Assembly (NCBI RefSeq): GCF_026343125.1
Contig: NZ_JAPEMB010000001.1
Coordinates: 3,038,001 to 3,102,000 of the forward strand
Reading direction: 5' to 3'
From: Streptomyces sp. NBC_00094
GTDB taxonomy: Bacteria; Actinomycetota; Actinomycetes; Streptomycetales; Streptomycetaceae
DNA: 64,000 nt
A model generated the notes under the pieces. That model saw only the letters and a list, made by a program, of their open reading frames with translations. It was not told where the DNA came from and did not search any database. A program made the position numbers and the translations under genes. Shown here piece after piece: positions 2,381 to 57,640 of this stretch; position 1 is the first letter of the stretch, and each line of letters opens with the position of its first letter.

Positions 2381-3831
<1,451 letters not shown>

Positions 3832-3837
3832 GGGCTC

Positions 3838-3843
3838 ATCGTA
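3838..3843 (-). promoter_or_regulatory. -10 element of a likely leaderless promoter for the leader-cysO-cysM unit
   Basis: On the minus strand TACGAT is followed by six bases and then the ATG of the leader peptide, placing the expected transcription start at or next to the A of the start codon. No convincing -35 box is seen. Confidence 0.5.
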
Positions 3844-3875
3844 TCGATTCCCGGTCCGGGTTTCGGAATGTGATC

Positions 3876-4661
3876 TCACATGGTGGATAGTTTCTGACCG
3901 CCTGCCGGACTGTGCAGGTAGACGACGGTCGGGCTGCCGCTCCTCGGATGCGGAATGACCTCGGCGTCCACCCCGTAGACGGCGTCGAGGAGGTCCGGGG
4001 TGAGGACCTCGGCGGGGGTGCCGCCGGTGACGACTCTCCCCCGCTCCAGGACGTAGAGACGGTCGCAGTACGCCCCCGCCAGGTTGAGGTCGTGCAGGGC
4101 GAGCAGGTTGGTGGTGCCCAGGGTGCGGACGAGGCGGAGGACGTCCAGCTGGTGGCGGATGTCCAGGTGGTTGGTGGGCTCGTCGAGGACGAGGAGGGCC
4201 GGGTCCTGGACGAGGGCGCGGGCGACCAGGGCACGTTGGCGTTCGCCGCCGGAGAGGGTGGGGTACGCGCGGTCGGCGAGCTCGGTGAGGCCGACGCGGG
4301 CGAGGGCGGCGTCCGCGCGCTCGTGGTCGGCGCCGGTGTCGCCCTCCCAGAACCGTTTGTGCGGGGAGCGGCCGAGGGCGACGAGTTCGCGGACGGTGAG
4401 TTCGAACTCGGTGGCGCTGTCCTGCGTGACGGTGGCGACGCGGCGGGCGCGGGCCTTGGGGCCGAGGGCACGGAGATCGTCGCCGTCGAGCGTGGCCCGT
4501 CCCTCGGTGGGGGTGAGGGTGCCGTAGACGCAGCGCAGGAGGGTCGTCTTGCCGCTGCCGTTGGGGCCGATGAGGCCCACGGTCTCGCCGGGGTGGACGG
4601 TGAGGTCGACGGAGCGGAGGCGTTCCTCGTACGAGAGTCCGTGCAGCCGGAGTTCGGTCAC
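3876..4661 (-). CDS. btuD: ABC transporter ATPase, cobalamin/siderophore type
   Basis: A 261-residue ATPase of the FecE/BtuD family that powers import of vitamin B12 or a related corrinoid. Walker A is GPNGSGKTT (about 34-42), the signature is LSGGERQRALVARAL, and Walker B is LLVLDEPTNHLDI with the following H-loop region LLALHDLNLAG. The GTG start overlaps the permease stop by four bases (GTGA), so translation is coupled. B12 rather than iron-siderophore is preferred because the operon leader is a cobalamin riboswitch. Confidence 0.9.
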   Translation of the reverse strand: MTELRLHGLSYEERLRSVDLTVHPGETVGLIGPNGSGKTTLLRCVYGTLTPTEGRATLDGDDLRALGPKARARRVATVTQDSATEFELTVRELVALGRSPHKRFWEGDTGADHERADAALARVGLTELADRAYPTLSGGERQRALVARALVQDPALLVLDEPTNHLDIRHQLDVLRLVRTLGTTNLLALHDLNLAGAYCDRLYVLERGRVVTGGTPAEVLTPDLLDAVYGVDAEVIPHPRSGSPTVVYLHSPAGGQKLSTM

Positions 4662-5725
4662 AGGGGTGCTCCTTCGGGACGGCGGCGCATCAGCCAGAGG
4701 AAGAACGGGCCGCCGGTGAGCGCGGTGAGGACGCCGACGGGGATGTCCTGGGGTGCGGCGACGGTCCGGGCGGCGAGGTCGGCGAGGACGAGGGCGAGCG
4801 CCCCGCCGAGCGCGGCGACGGGGAGGAGGCGGCGGTGCGGGGCGCCGACGGCGAGCCGGGCGGCGTGCGGGGCCATGAGGCCGATGAAGCCGACGGCTCC
4901 GCTGGCCGCGACCATGACGGCGGTGACGAGGGAGGCGAGGACGAAGACGGCGGCGCGGAAGCGGGCGGTGTCCAGGCCGAGGACGGTGGCGCCCTCCTCG
5001 CCGACGAGGAGGAGGTCGAGCGGGCGGGCGAGGGTGAGGAGGACGCCGACGCCGAGGGCGAGGACGACGGCGGGTAGGACGAGGGTGTCCCAGCGGGCGC
5101 TGCCGAGACCGCCGAGGGACCAGTACAGCGCCTCCTGGAACTGCTCGGGCCGCCCGGCGACGACCAGCAGGAGGGTGGCGAGGGCGGAGAGGACGTACGA
5201 GACGGCGACGCCGGCGAGGACGAGCCGGGCGCCGGTCATGGTCCCGCCGCGGCGCGCGAGCCCGTAGACGAGGACGAGGGCGAGGAGGGCGCCGGCGAAG
5301 GCCCCGCCGGGCAGGGCGATGGTCGTCGTCACCCCTCCCCCGATGCCCAGGACCAGGACGAGGACGGCGCCGGCGGAGGCGCCGGAGGAGATCCCGAGGA
5401 GGAAGGGGTCGGCGAGGCGGTTGCGGACGAGGGCCTGGAGGACGGCGCCGACGACGGCGAGCCCGGCGCCGACGACGACGCCGAGCAGGACCCGGGGCAG
5501 TCGGACGTCGAGCACGATCGTCCGGTACGGGGAGGGGGCGGCCCGCCCGGTCAGGGCGTCGAGCACCTGGCCGGGCGGGATGCGGACGGACCCGAGGGCG
5601 AGGGAGGCGAGGCCGGCGGCGGCGAGGGCGAGGGCGAGGCCGGTGACGACGAGGGCGTACCGGACGGGGCGTGCGGGGGCCGGGGCCCGGACCGGAGTCC
5701 GGGCCCTGTCGAGGACCGCGGTCAC
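4658..5725 (-). CDS. btuC: FecCD/BtuC-family ABC permease
   Basis: A 355-residue integral membrane protein with about nine to ten hydrophobic segments, beginning with a short basic N-terminus and a helix at about residues 26-47. It carries the FecCD hallmarks: the LRLPRVLLGVVVGAGLAVVGA-like stretch after the first helix, GISSGASAGA, and a late VGFIGLMAPHAARL segment that contacts the ATPase. It forms the channel of the importer with btuD. GTG at 5725 overlaps the stop of the binding protein gene by four bases. It lies in the middle of the three-gene operon. Confidence 0.92.
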   Translation of the reverse strand: MTAVLDRARTPVRAPAPARPVRYALVVTGLALALAAAGLASLALGSVRIPPGQVLDALTGRAAPSPYRTIVLDVRLPRVLLGVVVGAGLAVVGAVLQALVRNRLADPFLLGISSGASAGAVLVLVLGIGGGVTTTIALPGGAFAGALLALVLVYGLARRGGTMTGARLVLAGVAVSYVLSALATLLLVVAGRPEQFQEALYWSLGGLGSARWDTLVLPAVVLALGVGVLLTLARPLDLLLVGEEGATVLGLDTARFRAAVFVLASLVTAVMVAASGAVGFIGLMAPHAARLAVGAPHRRLLPVAALGGALALVLADLAARTVAAPQDIPVGVLTALTGGPFFLWLMRRRPEGAPL

Positions 5726-7665: not shown

Positions 7666-8547
7666 ACCACTCAAGTGTTCGGTACGGCCGGGGCGGGTTA
7701 CGAGGTGCGGGTGTGTTCGCCCGGCGGGCGGGACGTCCGCACCTCCTGCGGGCTGCGGATCGGCGCCGACCTCGCGGCCGGGGAGGTGTCCGGCGCGGAC
7801 ACGCTGATCGTGCCGGGGGCGGTGGACGTGGAGCTCTGTACGGCGCTGGCGCCGACGGTGGAGGCCCTGGCGGCGCGCTCGCGGCGGGTGGCGTCCGTCT
7901 GCACGGGGGCGTTCGCGCTCGGGGCGGCCGGGCTGCTCGCCGGGCGGCGGGCGACGACGCACTGGGAGCACGCGGCGGAGCTGGCGCGGCGCCATCCGGA
8001 CGTCGAGGTGACGGCGGACGCGATCCACGTGCGGGACGGCGAGGTGTGGAGCTCGGCGGGGGTGACGGCCGGGATCGACCTGTGTCTGGCCCTGGTGGAG
8101 GAGGACCGGGGCCCGGCGGCGGCCCGCGCGGTGGCGCGGGACCTGGTGGTCTTCCTCCAGCGGCCGGGCGGGCAGTCGCAGTTCTCGGCGGCCTCGCGCA
8201 CTCCCCCGTCCGGGCATCCGGTGGTCCGCCCGCTTCTGGACGCGGTGGTGGCGGATCCGGCGGCGGACCACAGCGCGTCGGCGCTCGCGCGGCGGGCGGG
8301 CGTCAGCGTCCGGCACCTGGCCCGGTTGTTCCGGGAGCAGATCGGGGCGACCCCGGCGGCGTACGTGGAGCGCGTACGGGTGGAGGCGGCGCGGATGCTG
8401 CTGGAGGGCGGGGCGAGCGTGACGGGGGCGGCGGCGCGGAGCGGGCTCGGCAGTGACGAGAGCCTGCGGAGGGCGTTCGCCCGGCACTTCGGGGTGACGC
8501 CCTCCGCCTACCTGGCCCGTTTCCGTACGGCGGCCTATCAGTCCTGA
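7519..8547 (+). pseudogene. GlxA-like AraC-family regulator lacking its native N-terminus
   Basis: From about base 7669 onward this is a standard GlxA-type regulator: a DJ-1/PfpI-like domain (QVFGTAGAGYEVRVC, VASVCTGAFALGAAGLLAG) then an AraC DNA-binding domain with two helix-turn-helix motifs (SALARRAGVSVRHLARLF and a second ending GVTPSAYLARFR). The family normally opens with a hydrophobic strand and DG motif before VFG; here that part is replaced by about 50 unrelated residues. The first in-frame ATG is at 7519, without a ribosome-binding site. The body is intact and might still be made from a cryptic start, but loss of the first strand probably disables the sensor domain. Its 3' end overlaps the convergent mec gene by 10 bases. 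Confidence 0.65.
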
Positions 8548-54783: not shown

Positions 54784-55311
54784 TTAGTCCTTCACCGCCC
54801 CGCCCAGTCCCGAGACCAGGCGGCGCTGTACGAGTACGAAGAAGACGAGCACCGGGATCGTCATCACGGTCGACCCGGCCATGATTCCTCCCCAGTCGTT
54901 CTCGTCGGGCTTGAAGAAGACGAGCAGTGCCATGGGGAGGGTCGACTGCGAGGTGTCGCTGATGAGGAAGGACTTCGCGAAGAGGAAGTCGTTCCAGGTC
55001 GAGATGAAGGAGAAGACGCTCGCCGCCAGGAAGGCGATGAGCGCGGAGGCGAGGACGACCGTGCCCGCCACGATCAGCGAGTTGACGAAGTAGCGGCCGA
55101 ACTCCTGCTGGTCGAAGACGCGTCGGAAGGAGTCGAGGGACGGGGAGAGCGTCCACGGCCGGGGGTCGGTCGACTGGATCTCGCCCGCCGGCTTGAAGGC
55201 CGAGAGGACCATCCAGTACAGGGGGAAGGCGACGGCCGCCGCGACGAGGAGCGTCACGGCCTCGGCGGCGAGGCGCCCGGGCCGCCGGATCCGGATACGG
55301 AACACGGTCAA
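54784..55311 (-). pseudogene. Sugar ABC permease (MalG/DasC type) with internal deletion
   Basis: The frame is open from TTG 55311 to 54784 (175 residues), but relatives have about 275. The first two helices are present (VTLLVAAAVAFPLYWMVLS, then FVNSLIVAGTVVLASALIAFLAA) and the C-terminus is normal (SVFSFISTWNDFLFAKS, then VQRRLVSGLGGAVKD). The segment between FLAA and SVFSFIS, about 95 residues including the EAA loop that contacts the ATPase, is missing, so the junction is near 55021. An in-frame deletion of this kind leaves no function in import. The start overlaps the upstream permease stop as TTGA. Confidence 0.85.
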
Positions 55312-55409
55312 AGTTCTTCTCCCTGGCGTCGCAGGAGCCTCAGGTAGACCAGGGTCACGGCCAGCAGGATCAGCAGCATGACCACGCCGATCGCCGATCC
55401 CAGGCTCAC
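55308..55409 (-). pseudogene. C-terminal remnant of the partner sugar ABC permease
   Basis: Thirty-three codons read GSAIGVVMLLILLAVTLVYL and end LLRRQGEEL, matching the last helix and tail of a MalF/LacF-type permease, followed by the stop that overlaps the next gene. Similarity stops at about 55409. Right of it begins the TnpB element. A GGAGGAA ribosome-binding-like sequence lies five bases before the GTG at 55409, so this stub could be translated. Confidence 0.8.
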
Positions 55410-55411
55410 GT

Positions 55412-57513
55412 GTTTCCTCCTGCCTCGGGTAGGGATGCATCGTCCACCGGCGTCCGGTGTCGCAGCTGAGTACGGGGATCGAATGCGTGACCTTTTCGTG
55501 GGGGTGTCGTTGATCGGATGACAGCATCAGTGGCGGGAAGGGGTTCTGGTGAACCGGAGACTGCCGCTCACCGAGGGCGAAACCGCTCGCACCGCGTGCA
55601 CCCGCGCATTGCTTCGTACGGGAGTTGACGAGGGGACGGGCGAACTCCTGGCCGCCTCTGCGTTGGCTGAACGGATCGACTGGGCCACTGACCTCGTGTG
55701 TGGAATGGCTCGCGGACTGCTGGTCGAGCATTGGAACGCAGGCGATGTCGACGCCCTCGCCTCGGGTGTGGACCCGGGCGGGCAAAAACTGCCGTCGAAC
55801 GCGTGGATGGCGCTGCGCCGGCTGGGCTGGACCGTGACCGAGCTGGACGGTATCCGTGTCAATGACCGGATCGTGCGGATGGCTCAGGAGCAGGCCGGGC
55901 GCACGTTGCGGTCGGCGAAATGGCGGGTTGATCTGACTGCCGGGGTGCTCGCGACCTGGCCCGCTGATCCGGCCAGGCGCACGCCCGAGGAGTGGGATGC
56001 GGTACGGGCTGCCATACCCGGTGGGAAGCATCTGCCGTCCAGTGCCATCAAGGGGCGCACCCGGCAGATCGCCGCGTATCTGCGCAGGAACGGGCGGCCG
56101 CCGGTCGATGTCTTCGAAGCGGAGACCGCGCCCCGGATCGCACGGATGCTGCTGCTGTCGGCGTGTGACGGGCAGCAGGCCACCATCGAGCGGCACGAGA
56201 CCGATCCGGGCCGAGCGCTGATCCGGCTGCAACTCCCCGCCCGGCCCGATCCGCGGTCGTACAAGGACTGGACGTGGGTGTCCTGCCCGATCACTCTGCC
56301 GCCGACGATCCCGGCTTCGGCGGCGTTGCACCTGCCCACCCTGCGCGTGGCCGGCGGCCGGGTGCGCGCGGATCTCGCATACTCCCACGCCGTTCCCAGG
56401 GCCGCCAGAGCCGGGCACACGGTCGCACTCGGCGTGGACTGGGGCCTGAACACCCTGCTCAGTGCCGGGGCTGTCCGGCTCCACGATGACGGCCGCCTCA
56501 CCGCCCTCGGAGCCGGGGGCATGTTCCGTGCCGGCGGTGTTCTCGCCAAACAGCACCGGCTCCGCCGCGAAAGCGGGTACGTGCAGGCCAAGGCCGACCA
56601 CTACCAGCGGCTCATCGAGGGGACCACCGCGCATCAGCTGGCCGCCGGACACGATGTGCTCCGTGAGGAGATCCACCGCCTGTCCGAGCGGCGGACGAAC
56701 CTGAACGATGCTCTGGCGTGGGCCGCGGCGCGGTGGGCTGTCGACCAGGCAGTTGCCGCCGGAGCGACCGTCATCTACGTGGAAGACCTGCGGTCGATGG
56801 AAGCACGCGGCATGGGCCGCTCGATGAACACCCGCCTGTCCCAGACAGTGCGCGGGCAGATCGCGGACCGCATGCGGCACCTCGCCACCGAGGTGGGCAT
56901 CGCGGTGGTCACCGTGCCCGCGAAGAACACCTCGAAGCACTGCCCGGAGTGTCTGACCCCGCTGCGGCACCGCAAAGCCCCCGACCGGCCCACCGTCCCG
57001 GGATGGAAATGGGCTATCTGCCCCGGCTGCGGATACCAGGGCGACCGCGACCAGGGTGCGTGGAAACGCATCGCCGCACGCGGCCTCACCCACCAAACGA
57101 AGACCGTGACCGAGCGCGCCAACGGCGGCGTCATGGCCATCCGCTCGGTGGTAGACAAGCTCGAAGCCAAAGCCGTGGTCAACCCGACCACCGCTAAGAC
57201 CAGCCGGGACCGGTCCAAGACCGGACCCACCCGGCGACAGACACCATGCCCCGCGCCCAGGCGACGCAGGGCACCCTCCCCCACCAGGTCGCAAGGCCAG
57301 GCGGGCAAGCGTCCGGAGGGACACGCTCACACGGACCGGCCCCGACTGCCCCGCGCAGCCCACCGGCACCAGGACGTGACGACGATCAGCACACCCACCA
57401 TCGGCCACCGGCCACGAGGAGCAGCCCTGGGCGCGGGATTCCACCTGCACGCCCACGCCACCCCTCCACGATGGGAACCCCGATGCCAGACACTACGTCT
57501 GACACGGGATCGC
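55412..57513 (+). mobile_element. Solo TnpB (IS1341/IS605-like) element
   Basis: About 2.1 kb with one tnpB-type gene and no tnpA. Subterminal hairpins are visible on both sides: CACCGG-CGT-CCGGTG at 55445-55459 on the left, and near the right end CAGAC-ACTAC-GTCTG (57487-57501) nested in CCCG/CGGG. There are no terminal inverted repeats and no target duplication, as expected for this class. Left flank is a permease C-terminus, right flank is a lipoprotein start, so the element spans a deletion in the host operon. Boundaries are estimates. Confidence 0.7.
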
Positions 57514-57525
57514 TTAGCTGATTAG
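55549..57525 (+). CDS. tnpB: TnpB/Cas12-superfamily RuvC-like nuclease
   Basis: A 658-residue protein. RuvC catalytic residues are all present: Asp in VALGVDWGLN, Glu in IYVEDLRSME, Asp in GDRDQGAWKRIAARG. The zinc ribbon is NTSKHCPECL followed by CPGCGY. TnpB proteins are RNA-guided DNA nucleases of about 400 residues; here the first 190 residues are an unusual extra N-terminal part, and the last 130 residues are basic low-complexity sequence that overlaps where a guide RNA would be encoded and crosses the element's right end. GTG at 55549 follows AAGGGG. No CRISPR array is nearby. Confidence 0.85.
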   Translation: MNRRLPLTEGETARTACTRALLRTGVDEGTGELLAASALAERIDWATDLVCGMARGLLVEHWNAGDVDALASGVDPGGQKLPSNAWMALRRLGWTVTELDGIRVNDRIVRMAQEQAGRTLRSAKWRVDLTAGVLATWPADPARRTPEEWDAVRAAIPGGKHLPSSAIKGRTRQIAAYLRRNGRPPVDVFEAETAPRIARMLLLSACDGQQATIERHETDPGRALIRLQLPARPDPRSYKDWTWVSCPITLPPTIPASAALHLPTLRVAGGRVRADLAYSHAVPRAARAGHTVALGVDWGLNTLLSAGAVRLHDDGRLTALGAGGMFRAGGVLAKQHRLRRESGYVQAKADHYQRLIEGTTAHQLAAGHDVLREEIHRLSERRTNLNDALAWAAARWAVDQAVAAGATVIYVEDLRSMEARGMGRSMNTRLSQTVRGQIADRMRHLATEVGIAVVTVPAKNTSKHCPECLTPLRHRKAPDRPTVPGWKWAICPGCGYQGDRDQGAWKRIAARGLTHQTKTVTERANGGVMAIRSVVDKLEAKAVVNPTTAKTSRDRSKTGPTRRQTPCPAPRRRRAPSPTRSQGQAGKRPEGHAHTDRPRLPRAAHRHQDVTTISTPTIGHRPRGAALGAGFHLHAHATPPRWEPRCQTLRLTRDRLAD

Positions 57526-57561
57526 AGACGCTGTACTGGGACGAGGCGAGCTTCGCTTCAT
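57514..57561 (-). pseudogene. 5' stub of a sugar-binding lipoprotein gene
   Basis: ATG at 57561 has GGAGG nine bases upstream. It reads MKRSSPRPSTASLIS then stops, the basic start of a signal peptide cut off before its hydrophobic core. Its place (first gene position of the former operon that ends with two permeases and GH20), strand and orientation all fit a substrate-binding lipoprotein. The last codons already lie in the mobile element's right end. Identity as a binding protein is inferred from operon layout. Confidence 0.6.
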
Positions 57562-57580
57562 GCGGACCCCCCTCCAAGCG

Positions 57581-57640
57581 TGTTGCAACATACGCAATGA
57601 GCGTTTCGTTCTGCACAACACGCGTGAGGTTAGGCGCGCC
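57581..57640 (-). promoter_or_regulatory. Preserved operator/promoter of the destroyed sugar operon
   Basis: Upstream of the stub is the perfect palindrome TGTTGCAACA (57581-57590) and, on the minus strand, the sequences AACGAAACGCTCATTGC and TGTTGTGC. The arrangement resembles a regulator site such as those of LacI or IclR families. It is AT-rich compared with its surroundings. It would now transcribe only the stub and then the antisense strand of tnpB. Confidence 0.5.

What the first reader, a model, noticed from the sequence alone, without database searches (positions are those of the whole stretch)
55308..57640. A solo TnpB element has replaced the core of a sugar ABC operon and its guide would read the operon's own start
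Left of the element are the last 33 codons of a sugar permease; right of it are a ribosome-binding site and the first codons of a lipoprotein-like gene with an intact upstream palindrome. Everything between (almost all of the binding protein and first permease) is gone. In TnpB systems the guide RNA ends in the sequence just outside the element's right end, here the start codon region of the destroyed operon. Either the element landed and deleted its flank, or TnpB cutting at the guide-matched site drove the loss. This is a rare clear footprint of TnpB-linked deletion.
Basis: partly seen in the sequence, partly recalled or inferred. Interest (0 to 1): 0.85.

Follow-up and report, generated by a model that had tools for sequence, protein, structure and literature searches.

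The report
TnpB insertion with cut-site deletion scar
A small mobile element carrying a probable RNA-guided DNA cutter landed cleanly inside a sugar-transport gene of a Streptomyces, and a separate deletion of about 2.15 kb starts 17 bases from its edge, about where that kind of cutter cuts, which is suggestive but so far a single case.

Summary
A solo tnpB element (55407-57532, 2126 bp) sits in a sugar ABC operon that has lost most of its first permease and nearly all of its binding protein. Comparison with relatives corrects the reading. The element inserted cleanly after AGGCT inside permease 1: L061 and others read AGGCT|GTACTGGGACGAGGCGA|AGGCC; the window has AGGCT-element-GTACTGGGACGAGGCGA. 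The loss (2144-2213 bp against nine relatives) is separate: it begins 17 nt beyond the element's right end and ends at codon 3 of the binding protein, with 5 extra bases. So the first 17 nt of the would-be guide are permease 1, not the operon start. Published TnpB cuts lie there (16/22 nt in an IS607 TnpB, 15-21 in ISDra2), and the genome has two Ku genes. Some family members carry a serine recombinase, so I call the family IS607-like. Against a TnpB cause: it is one case; of 29 other copies tested, 18 have an unbroken right flank, one probably, and none shows a break at 15-22 nt (two undetermined, seven without a listed homolog); a second deletion in the operon is unrelated to the guide; a relative lost the transporter without the element. 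TnpB-cut scar: about 0.48. Unrelated deletion: about 0.35.

The parts
55402..55406 (+). AGGCT, target/TAM-like motif directly left of the element
   Evidence: present in the empty site of relatives; exactly AGGCT in 22 of 32 copies, the window's included, whose left end I marked by eye
55407..57532 (+). solo tnpB element, 2126 bp, no target duplication apart from a shared GCT
   Evidence: ends defined by family comparison and by the empty site
55549..57525 (+). tnpB ORF, 658 codons; part conserved at protein level ends near 57180
   Evidence: D297, E412, D499/D501 and four zinc-finger cysteines conserved
57302..57532 (+). conserved 3' region (start approximate), probable guide-RNA scaffold, ending exactly at the right end (...GAGACGCT)
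   Evidence: alignment of 38 copies; consensus fold with little covariation; no RNA data
57533..57549 (+). 17 nt of permease 1 left beside the element; would be the start of the guide
   Evidence: AGGCT plus these 17 nt is found exactly in 10 of 28 relatives, including all 8 that keep the operon
57550..57554 (+). 5 extra bases GCTTC at the deletion join, repeating the next 5
   Evidence: not in the relatives read at this place; other alignments of the join are possible
57555..57561 (-). remains of the binding-protein gene: first two codons plus one base
   Evidence: alignment to relatives
57570..57623 (-). ribosome-binding site and upstream palindrome of the lost binding-protein gene
   Evidence: similar in relatives
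55308..55406 (-). last 33 codons (stop included) of permease 1
54784..55306 (-). permease 2 with an in-frame 306-bp internal deletion at about 55020-55031
   Evidence: no Pfam hit

Best explanation
A solo, IS607-like tnpB element inserted cleanly at AGGCT in the 3' part of permease 1 (shown by comparison). TnpB, guided by an RNA whose 3' end copies the right flank, then made a double-strand break about 17 nt right of the element or at the matching place of an un-inserted chromosome copy (inferred). The free right end was eaten back by about 2.15 kb and rejoined by Ku-dependent end joining with 5 added bases, removing the rest of permease 1 and the binding protein while leaving the element and 17 nt of target in place (inferred). 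The simplest route to an intact element plus 17 nt is a rare cut of the inserted copy itself, where the right end (ACGCT) differs from AGGCT by one base; the alternative is faulty repair of a cut empty copy using the inserted copy. The rest of the operon then decayed (the order of the permease-2 deletion is inferred).
For: Clean empty site in relatives. Break 17 nt from the right end, a right end shared to the base by 38 aligned copies, 19 of them (the window's included) known from protein search. Published cut sites: mostly 16 nt on the non-target and 22 nt on the target strand for the IS607 TnpB ISFba1 (PMC11061315, passages); 15-21 bp from the TAM for ISDra2 (PMC8612924, passages). TnpB conserved at the expected catalytic positions. 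Two Ku genes over the Pfam cut-off. Repair of induced breaks in S. ambofaciens gave deletions of 191-23,591 bp, with nucleotide additions in 40% of scars (PMC5869714, section 5).
Against: One case only. Of 29 other copies tested, 18 have an unbroken right flank, 1 probably so, 1 breaks at about +51 to +55, 2 are undetermined and 7 had no homolog listed; none shows a break at 15-22 nt. The right end did not carry AGGCT in any of 21 distinct copies found by protein search (base -4: C in 20, T in 1), so the inserted copy should be protected; in ISFba1 any single TAM change abolished cleavage. The same operon shows a guide-unrelated 306-bp deletion, and relative G342 lost the transporter at this locus without the element. 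The 5-base repeat is not the 1-4 nt fill-in described for S. ambofaciens. Activity and guide length of this TnpB are unknown.
Confidence: 0.48

Rival explanations
1. The element inserted cleanly and killed the operon; later an unrelated deletion, one of several in a dispensable operon, happened to end 17 nt from it.
For: A second, guide-unrelated in-frame 306-bp deletion lies in permease 2; G342 lost the transporter with no element at the locus; copy L126 shows a break about 51-55 nt from its right end, so near-end breaks outside the cut window occur.
Against: The break falls in the 15-22 nt window. My rough estimate of that by chance is 8 of about 2170 positions (0.4%), or 8 of 300 (3%) if only breaks within 300 bp would have been noticed.
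Confidence: 0.35
2. The deletion came first, and the element later inserted at an AGGCT that happened to lie 17 nt from the join.
For: The final sequence alone does not order the events; G342 shows that the transporter can be lost without the element.
Against: Needs a coincidence of the same size; none of the 28 relatives read at the site has this deletion, and the loss in G342 has other ends.
Confidence: 0.12
3. The element removed its flank during integration.
For: Loss beside an element is the naive reading.
Against: Both flanks are collinear with the empty site for 17 nt beyond the element, and most other informative copies are clean on the right.
Confidence: 0.02
4. Assembly or sequencing artefact at the join.
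For: No reads were available.
Against: The genome is in 2 contigs and listed as 100% complete. The join was not checked against reads.
Confidence: 0.03

Closest known systems
IS607-family TnpB systems (ISFba1, PMC11061315; passages and Discussion seen)
   Same: Gene of the TnpB kind, 5-nt motif beside the left end, serine recombinase match upstream in 10 of 50 tnpB-bearing family loci, cut distance compatible with the break
   Different: This TnpB is larger (about 544 conserved residues against an average of 390), the motif is AGGCT rather than AGGAG or GAGGG, the reading frame runs through the scaffold, no Rfam match at gathering threshold, and the window copy has no recombinase
ISDra2 TnpB (IS200/IS605, PMC8612924; passages seen)
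   Same: Guide from the right flank, cut 15-21 bp from the TAM, scaffold at the 3' end of the element
   Different: Family recombinase is serine type where one was found; motif differs from TTGAT
End-joining scars after induced breaks in Streptomyces ambofaciens (PMC5869714; section 5 and passages seen)
   Same: Kilobase-scale deletion, added nucleotides, Ku genes present
   Different: There the break was made by I-SceI; here the cause is inferred, and the 5-base repeat at the join is not the 1-4 nt fill-in described there

Membership tests
IS607-like TnpB elements | serine recombinase TnpA encoded upstream in the family | tested here: met
   a match to the L019 recombinase in 10 of 50 tnpB-bearing loci among the 81 examined, several of them partial (one of the 50, L020, duplicates L005); Resolvase PF00239 plus HTH in L019, the only one scanned; the window copy itself has none and is read as a solo derivative
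IS607-like TnpB elements | insertion without loss or long target duplication | tested here: met
   empty site in relatives; only GCT shared by both ends
TnpB nucleases | RuvC acidic triad and zinc ribbon | tested here: met
   D297, E412, D499/D501, C465, C468, C491, C494 invariant in 18 aligned sequences; profile matches Cas12g (residues 336-508) and Cas12f (355-515) chains; assignment of D297 by recalled motif
TnpB nucleases | guide RNA ending in the right flank | tested here: inconclusive
   conserved 3' region ends exactly at the right end, weak covariation; no RNA data
TnpB nucleases | RNA-guided cleavage next to a TAM | not testable with these tools
   needs biochemistry
IS607 TnpB with RAGATH-18 RNA | RAGATH-18 scaffold | tested here: inconclusive
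   no Rfam family at gathering threshold in the element; whether Rfam 15 holds RAGATH-18 was not checked
IS200/IS605 | Y1 transposase | not tested
   no search for Y1 was run; where a transposase gene was found in the family it matched the serine type

The most novel reading that the evidence does not exclude
This is a natural scar of TnpB cutting: a chromosomal break made at the guide-defined position beside its own element and closed by end joining, so that TnpB activity deletes host genes next to the element where end joining is available. With it goes a self-protection rule: the right end keeps the GCT shared with the target motif but has no G at -4 (0 of 21 distinct copies found by protein search), the base found in 31 of 32 left flanks, so the inserted copy lies one base away from being a target.
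Probability: 0.4. Interest if true: 0.75.

Novelty: new member of a known kind. Interest (0 to 1): 0.5.

Why it matters
TnpB is thought to keep its transposon by cutting empty sites for repair from an inserted copy (PMC8612924 and PMC11870625, passages). What happens when the cell joins ends instead seems little documented in natural genomes. My paper searches (lists capped, open-licence library only) listed no title on deletions beside native TnpB elements; the one paper holding both 'TnpB' and 'adjacent deletion' (PMC11708052, listing only) concerns insertion sequences in general. If breaks at guide distance recur, TnpB would be a source of directed gene loss in bacteria with Ku, and the position of such breaks would report TnpB activity from genome sequence alone. 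The candidate is directly testable: element, motif and target are defined to the base.

Tried and rejected
Rejected: loss on landing (empty sites collinear). Rejected: guide from the binding-protein start (first 17 nt are permease 1). A recurring 17-nt break in the family was looked for and not found. L134 first looked like a second case, with homology starting 16 nt from the right end in three of four relatives, but its left flank is rearranged (in G009 and G024, the two pairs I compared, the left-flank gene lies about 5 kb away in inverted relative orientation) and the region upstream of the right-hand gene varies among relatives, so it is undetermined. L009 looked broken (homology from +10 and +21) but aligns by eye across the join. 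L165 has homology only from about +66 to +72, undetermined. Guide matches elsewhere in the genome: only the element's own flank matches exactly; up to 3 mismatches gives 124 places against 83 for the reversed control; three places with 2 mismatches were read and none follows AGGCT, the others were not. RNA structure: 36 pairs predicted, only 2 with double changes, so no strong claim. Plasmid search found 8 records, one covering at least 80% of the query; phage search found none.

Selection and bias: left ends were marked by eye looking for AGGCT-like motifs, so the motif counts lean that way. Right ends of L111-L170 came from a pattern ending in GACGCT with at most one mismatch, so the base count at -4 was taken only from the 21 distinct copies. 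Six of the 120 places listed end in GAGAGGCT, that is with AGGCT at the right end; I took them for other sequence: the one held as a locus (L085) has no tnpB within 1.5 kb, the other five were not read. Of the 120 places I fetched 60; about 20 more were already held, and the rest, mostly with mismatches shared by several genomes, were left out. Of 31 distinct other copies with a marked left end, 24 were tested, plus 5 of the 8 candidates; L027, L028, L116, L128, L136, L142 and L152 were marked but not tested. In the joined-flank searches only 6 or 2 candidates per genome were scored and tables were cut at about 150 rows, so 'no homolog' means none listed. The query is one base longer than the 4840 intended.

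Full report
What is there. At 55549-57525 (+) is a tnpB-like ORF, matched by Pfam Cas12f1-like_TNB. It is the only copy in its genome; 18 of 199 genus genomes, the window's own included, carry a relative. In the named collection 51 loci were found, 28 of them in Streptomyces and the rest in other actinobacteria. On both sides of the window copy lie pieces of a sugar ABC operon on the minus strand.

Ends of the element. Copies found by protein search share a right end ...GCTGATYAGAGACGCT with small changes, after which the sequences diverge at once, and left ends beginning CACG-like after an AGGCT-like motif. In the window these fall at 57532 and 55407, giving 2126 bp. A match to a serine recombinase lies upstream of tnpB in 10 of the 50 tnpB-bearing loci among 81 examined, several of them partial (Resolvase domain in L019), so I treat the family as IS607-like and the window copy as a solo derivative. 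The own genome holds two genes 36% identical to that recombinase and no closer one was reported.

The empty site. In relative L061 the operon is intact, with permease 1 at 2521-3483 and the binding protein at 3489-4793. Its permease 1 reads CCCAGGCT GTACTGGGACGAGGCGA AGGCC. The window reads CCCAGGCT, element, GTACTGGGACGAGGCGA, then GCTTCGCTTCATG. The 20 relatives first fetched show the same arrangement with substitutions, and eight more from near the top (L258-L262, L264-L266) have AGGCT plus the 17 nt exactly (10 of 28 overall exact). The insertion was therefore clean. The loss is a second event: from 17 nt right of the element to the third codon of the binding protein, 2150 bp by L061 coordinates and 2144-2213 bp against the eight. 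Five bases, GCTTC, are added at the join and repeat the next five; other alignments of the join are possible.

Why 17 nt matters. TnpB takes its guide from the flank at the right end. An IS607 TnpB, ISFba1, cuts mostly 16 nt (non-target strand) and 22 nt (target strand) from the TAM, leaving 5' overhangs (PMC11061315, passages); ISDra2 cuts at 15-21 bp (PMC8612924, passages). The break here is inside that range. The genome has two Ku genes above the Pfam cut-off. In S. ambofaciens, breaks made by I-SceI gave deletions of 191 to 23,591 bp, microhomology in half of the scars and nucleotide additions in 40% (PMC5869714, section 5). TnpB itself looks intact: acidic residues and zinc-finger cysteines are invariant among 18 sequences, and the profile matches Cas12g and Cas12f chains.

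Controls. I joined left and right flanks of 29 other copies and looked for contiguous homologs in other genomes (details). In 18 the right flank is unbroken past 17 nt: L002, L004, L006, L007, L013, L014, L015, L024, L118, L124, L127, L144, L145, L158, L162, L209, L213, L245. L009 is probably unbroken. L126 breaks at about 51-55 nt. L134 and L165 are undetermined. Seven had no homolog listed: L003, L005, L111, L112, L135, L211, L218. So deletion at guide distance is not a general habit of this family.

Against a special cause. The operon decays by other means too: permease 2 has an in-frame 306-bp deletion with short imperfect homology and no visible relation to the guide. G342, whose neighbouring DNA is 97% identical over 311 bp, has lost both permeases and the binding protein at this locus without the element (no right-end pattern in that genome). 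By rough estimate (mine), a random end would fall in the 15-22 nt window in 0.4% to 3% of cases, depending on what would have been noticed. The sequence alone does not order insertion and deletion.

How it could work. If the empty copy is the target, as in the accepted model, the cut end must be repaired partly from the inserted copy and partly by end joining. If the inserted copy is cut, the observed product follows directly, but its right end, ACGCT, lacks the base that left flanks almost always have (G at -4 in 31 of 32 left flanks; G in 0 of 21 distinct protein-found right ends). I read this as a one-base safeguard that could leak rarely; that is inference.

Verdict. The element and the clean insertion are shown; the deletion 17 nt away is shown; the TnpB cause is an inference at about even odds. 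The element is a new member of a known kind. The scar reading is the part of interest.

Noticed in passing
window 57562-57640: After the deletion the binding-protein promoter region (position inferred) points leftwards into the element about 50-90 bp from its right end, so it could drive antisense transcription through the guide-RNA region and tnpB.
   Followed up: no
window 55020-55031: In-frame 306-bp internal deletion in permease 2 compared with relatives, with short imperfect homology at the join.
   Followed up: partly
L263 (G342), 7961-8001: A relative has lost the whole transporter (both permeases and binding protein) at this locus; the hexosaminidase gene and the old upstream region are joined, with no tnpB element.
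   Followed up: partly
L116, L136: Short elements (246 and 487 bp) with recognisable left and right ends but no or almost no tnpB, MITE-like.
   Followed up: no
L126 and L128: Copies in two genomes lie at what looks by eye like the same intergenic site in opposite orientation; L126 has a rearrangement about 51-55 nt from its right end.
   Followed up: partly
L014 and L028; L024 and L142: Pairs of copies in different genomes share what looks by eye like the same insertion site.
   Followed up: no
L258, L259, L262, L264, L265: Several relatives carry a GC-rich repeat (TGCTCG...CCGAG-like) inside the start of the binding-protein gene.
   Followed up: no
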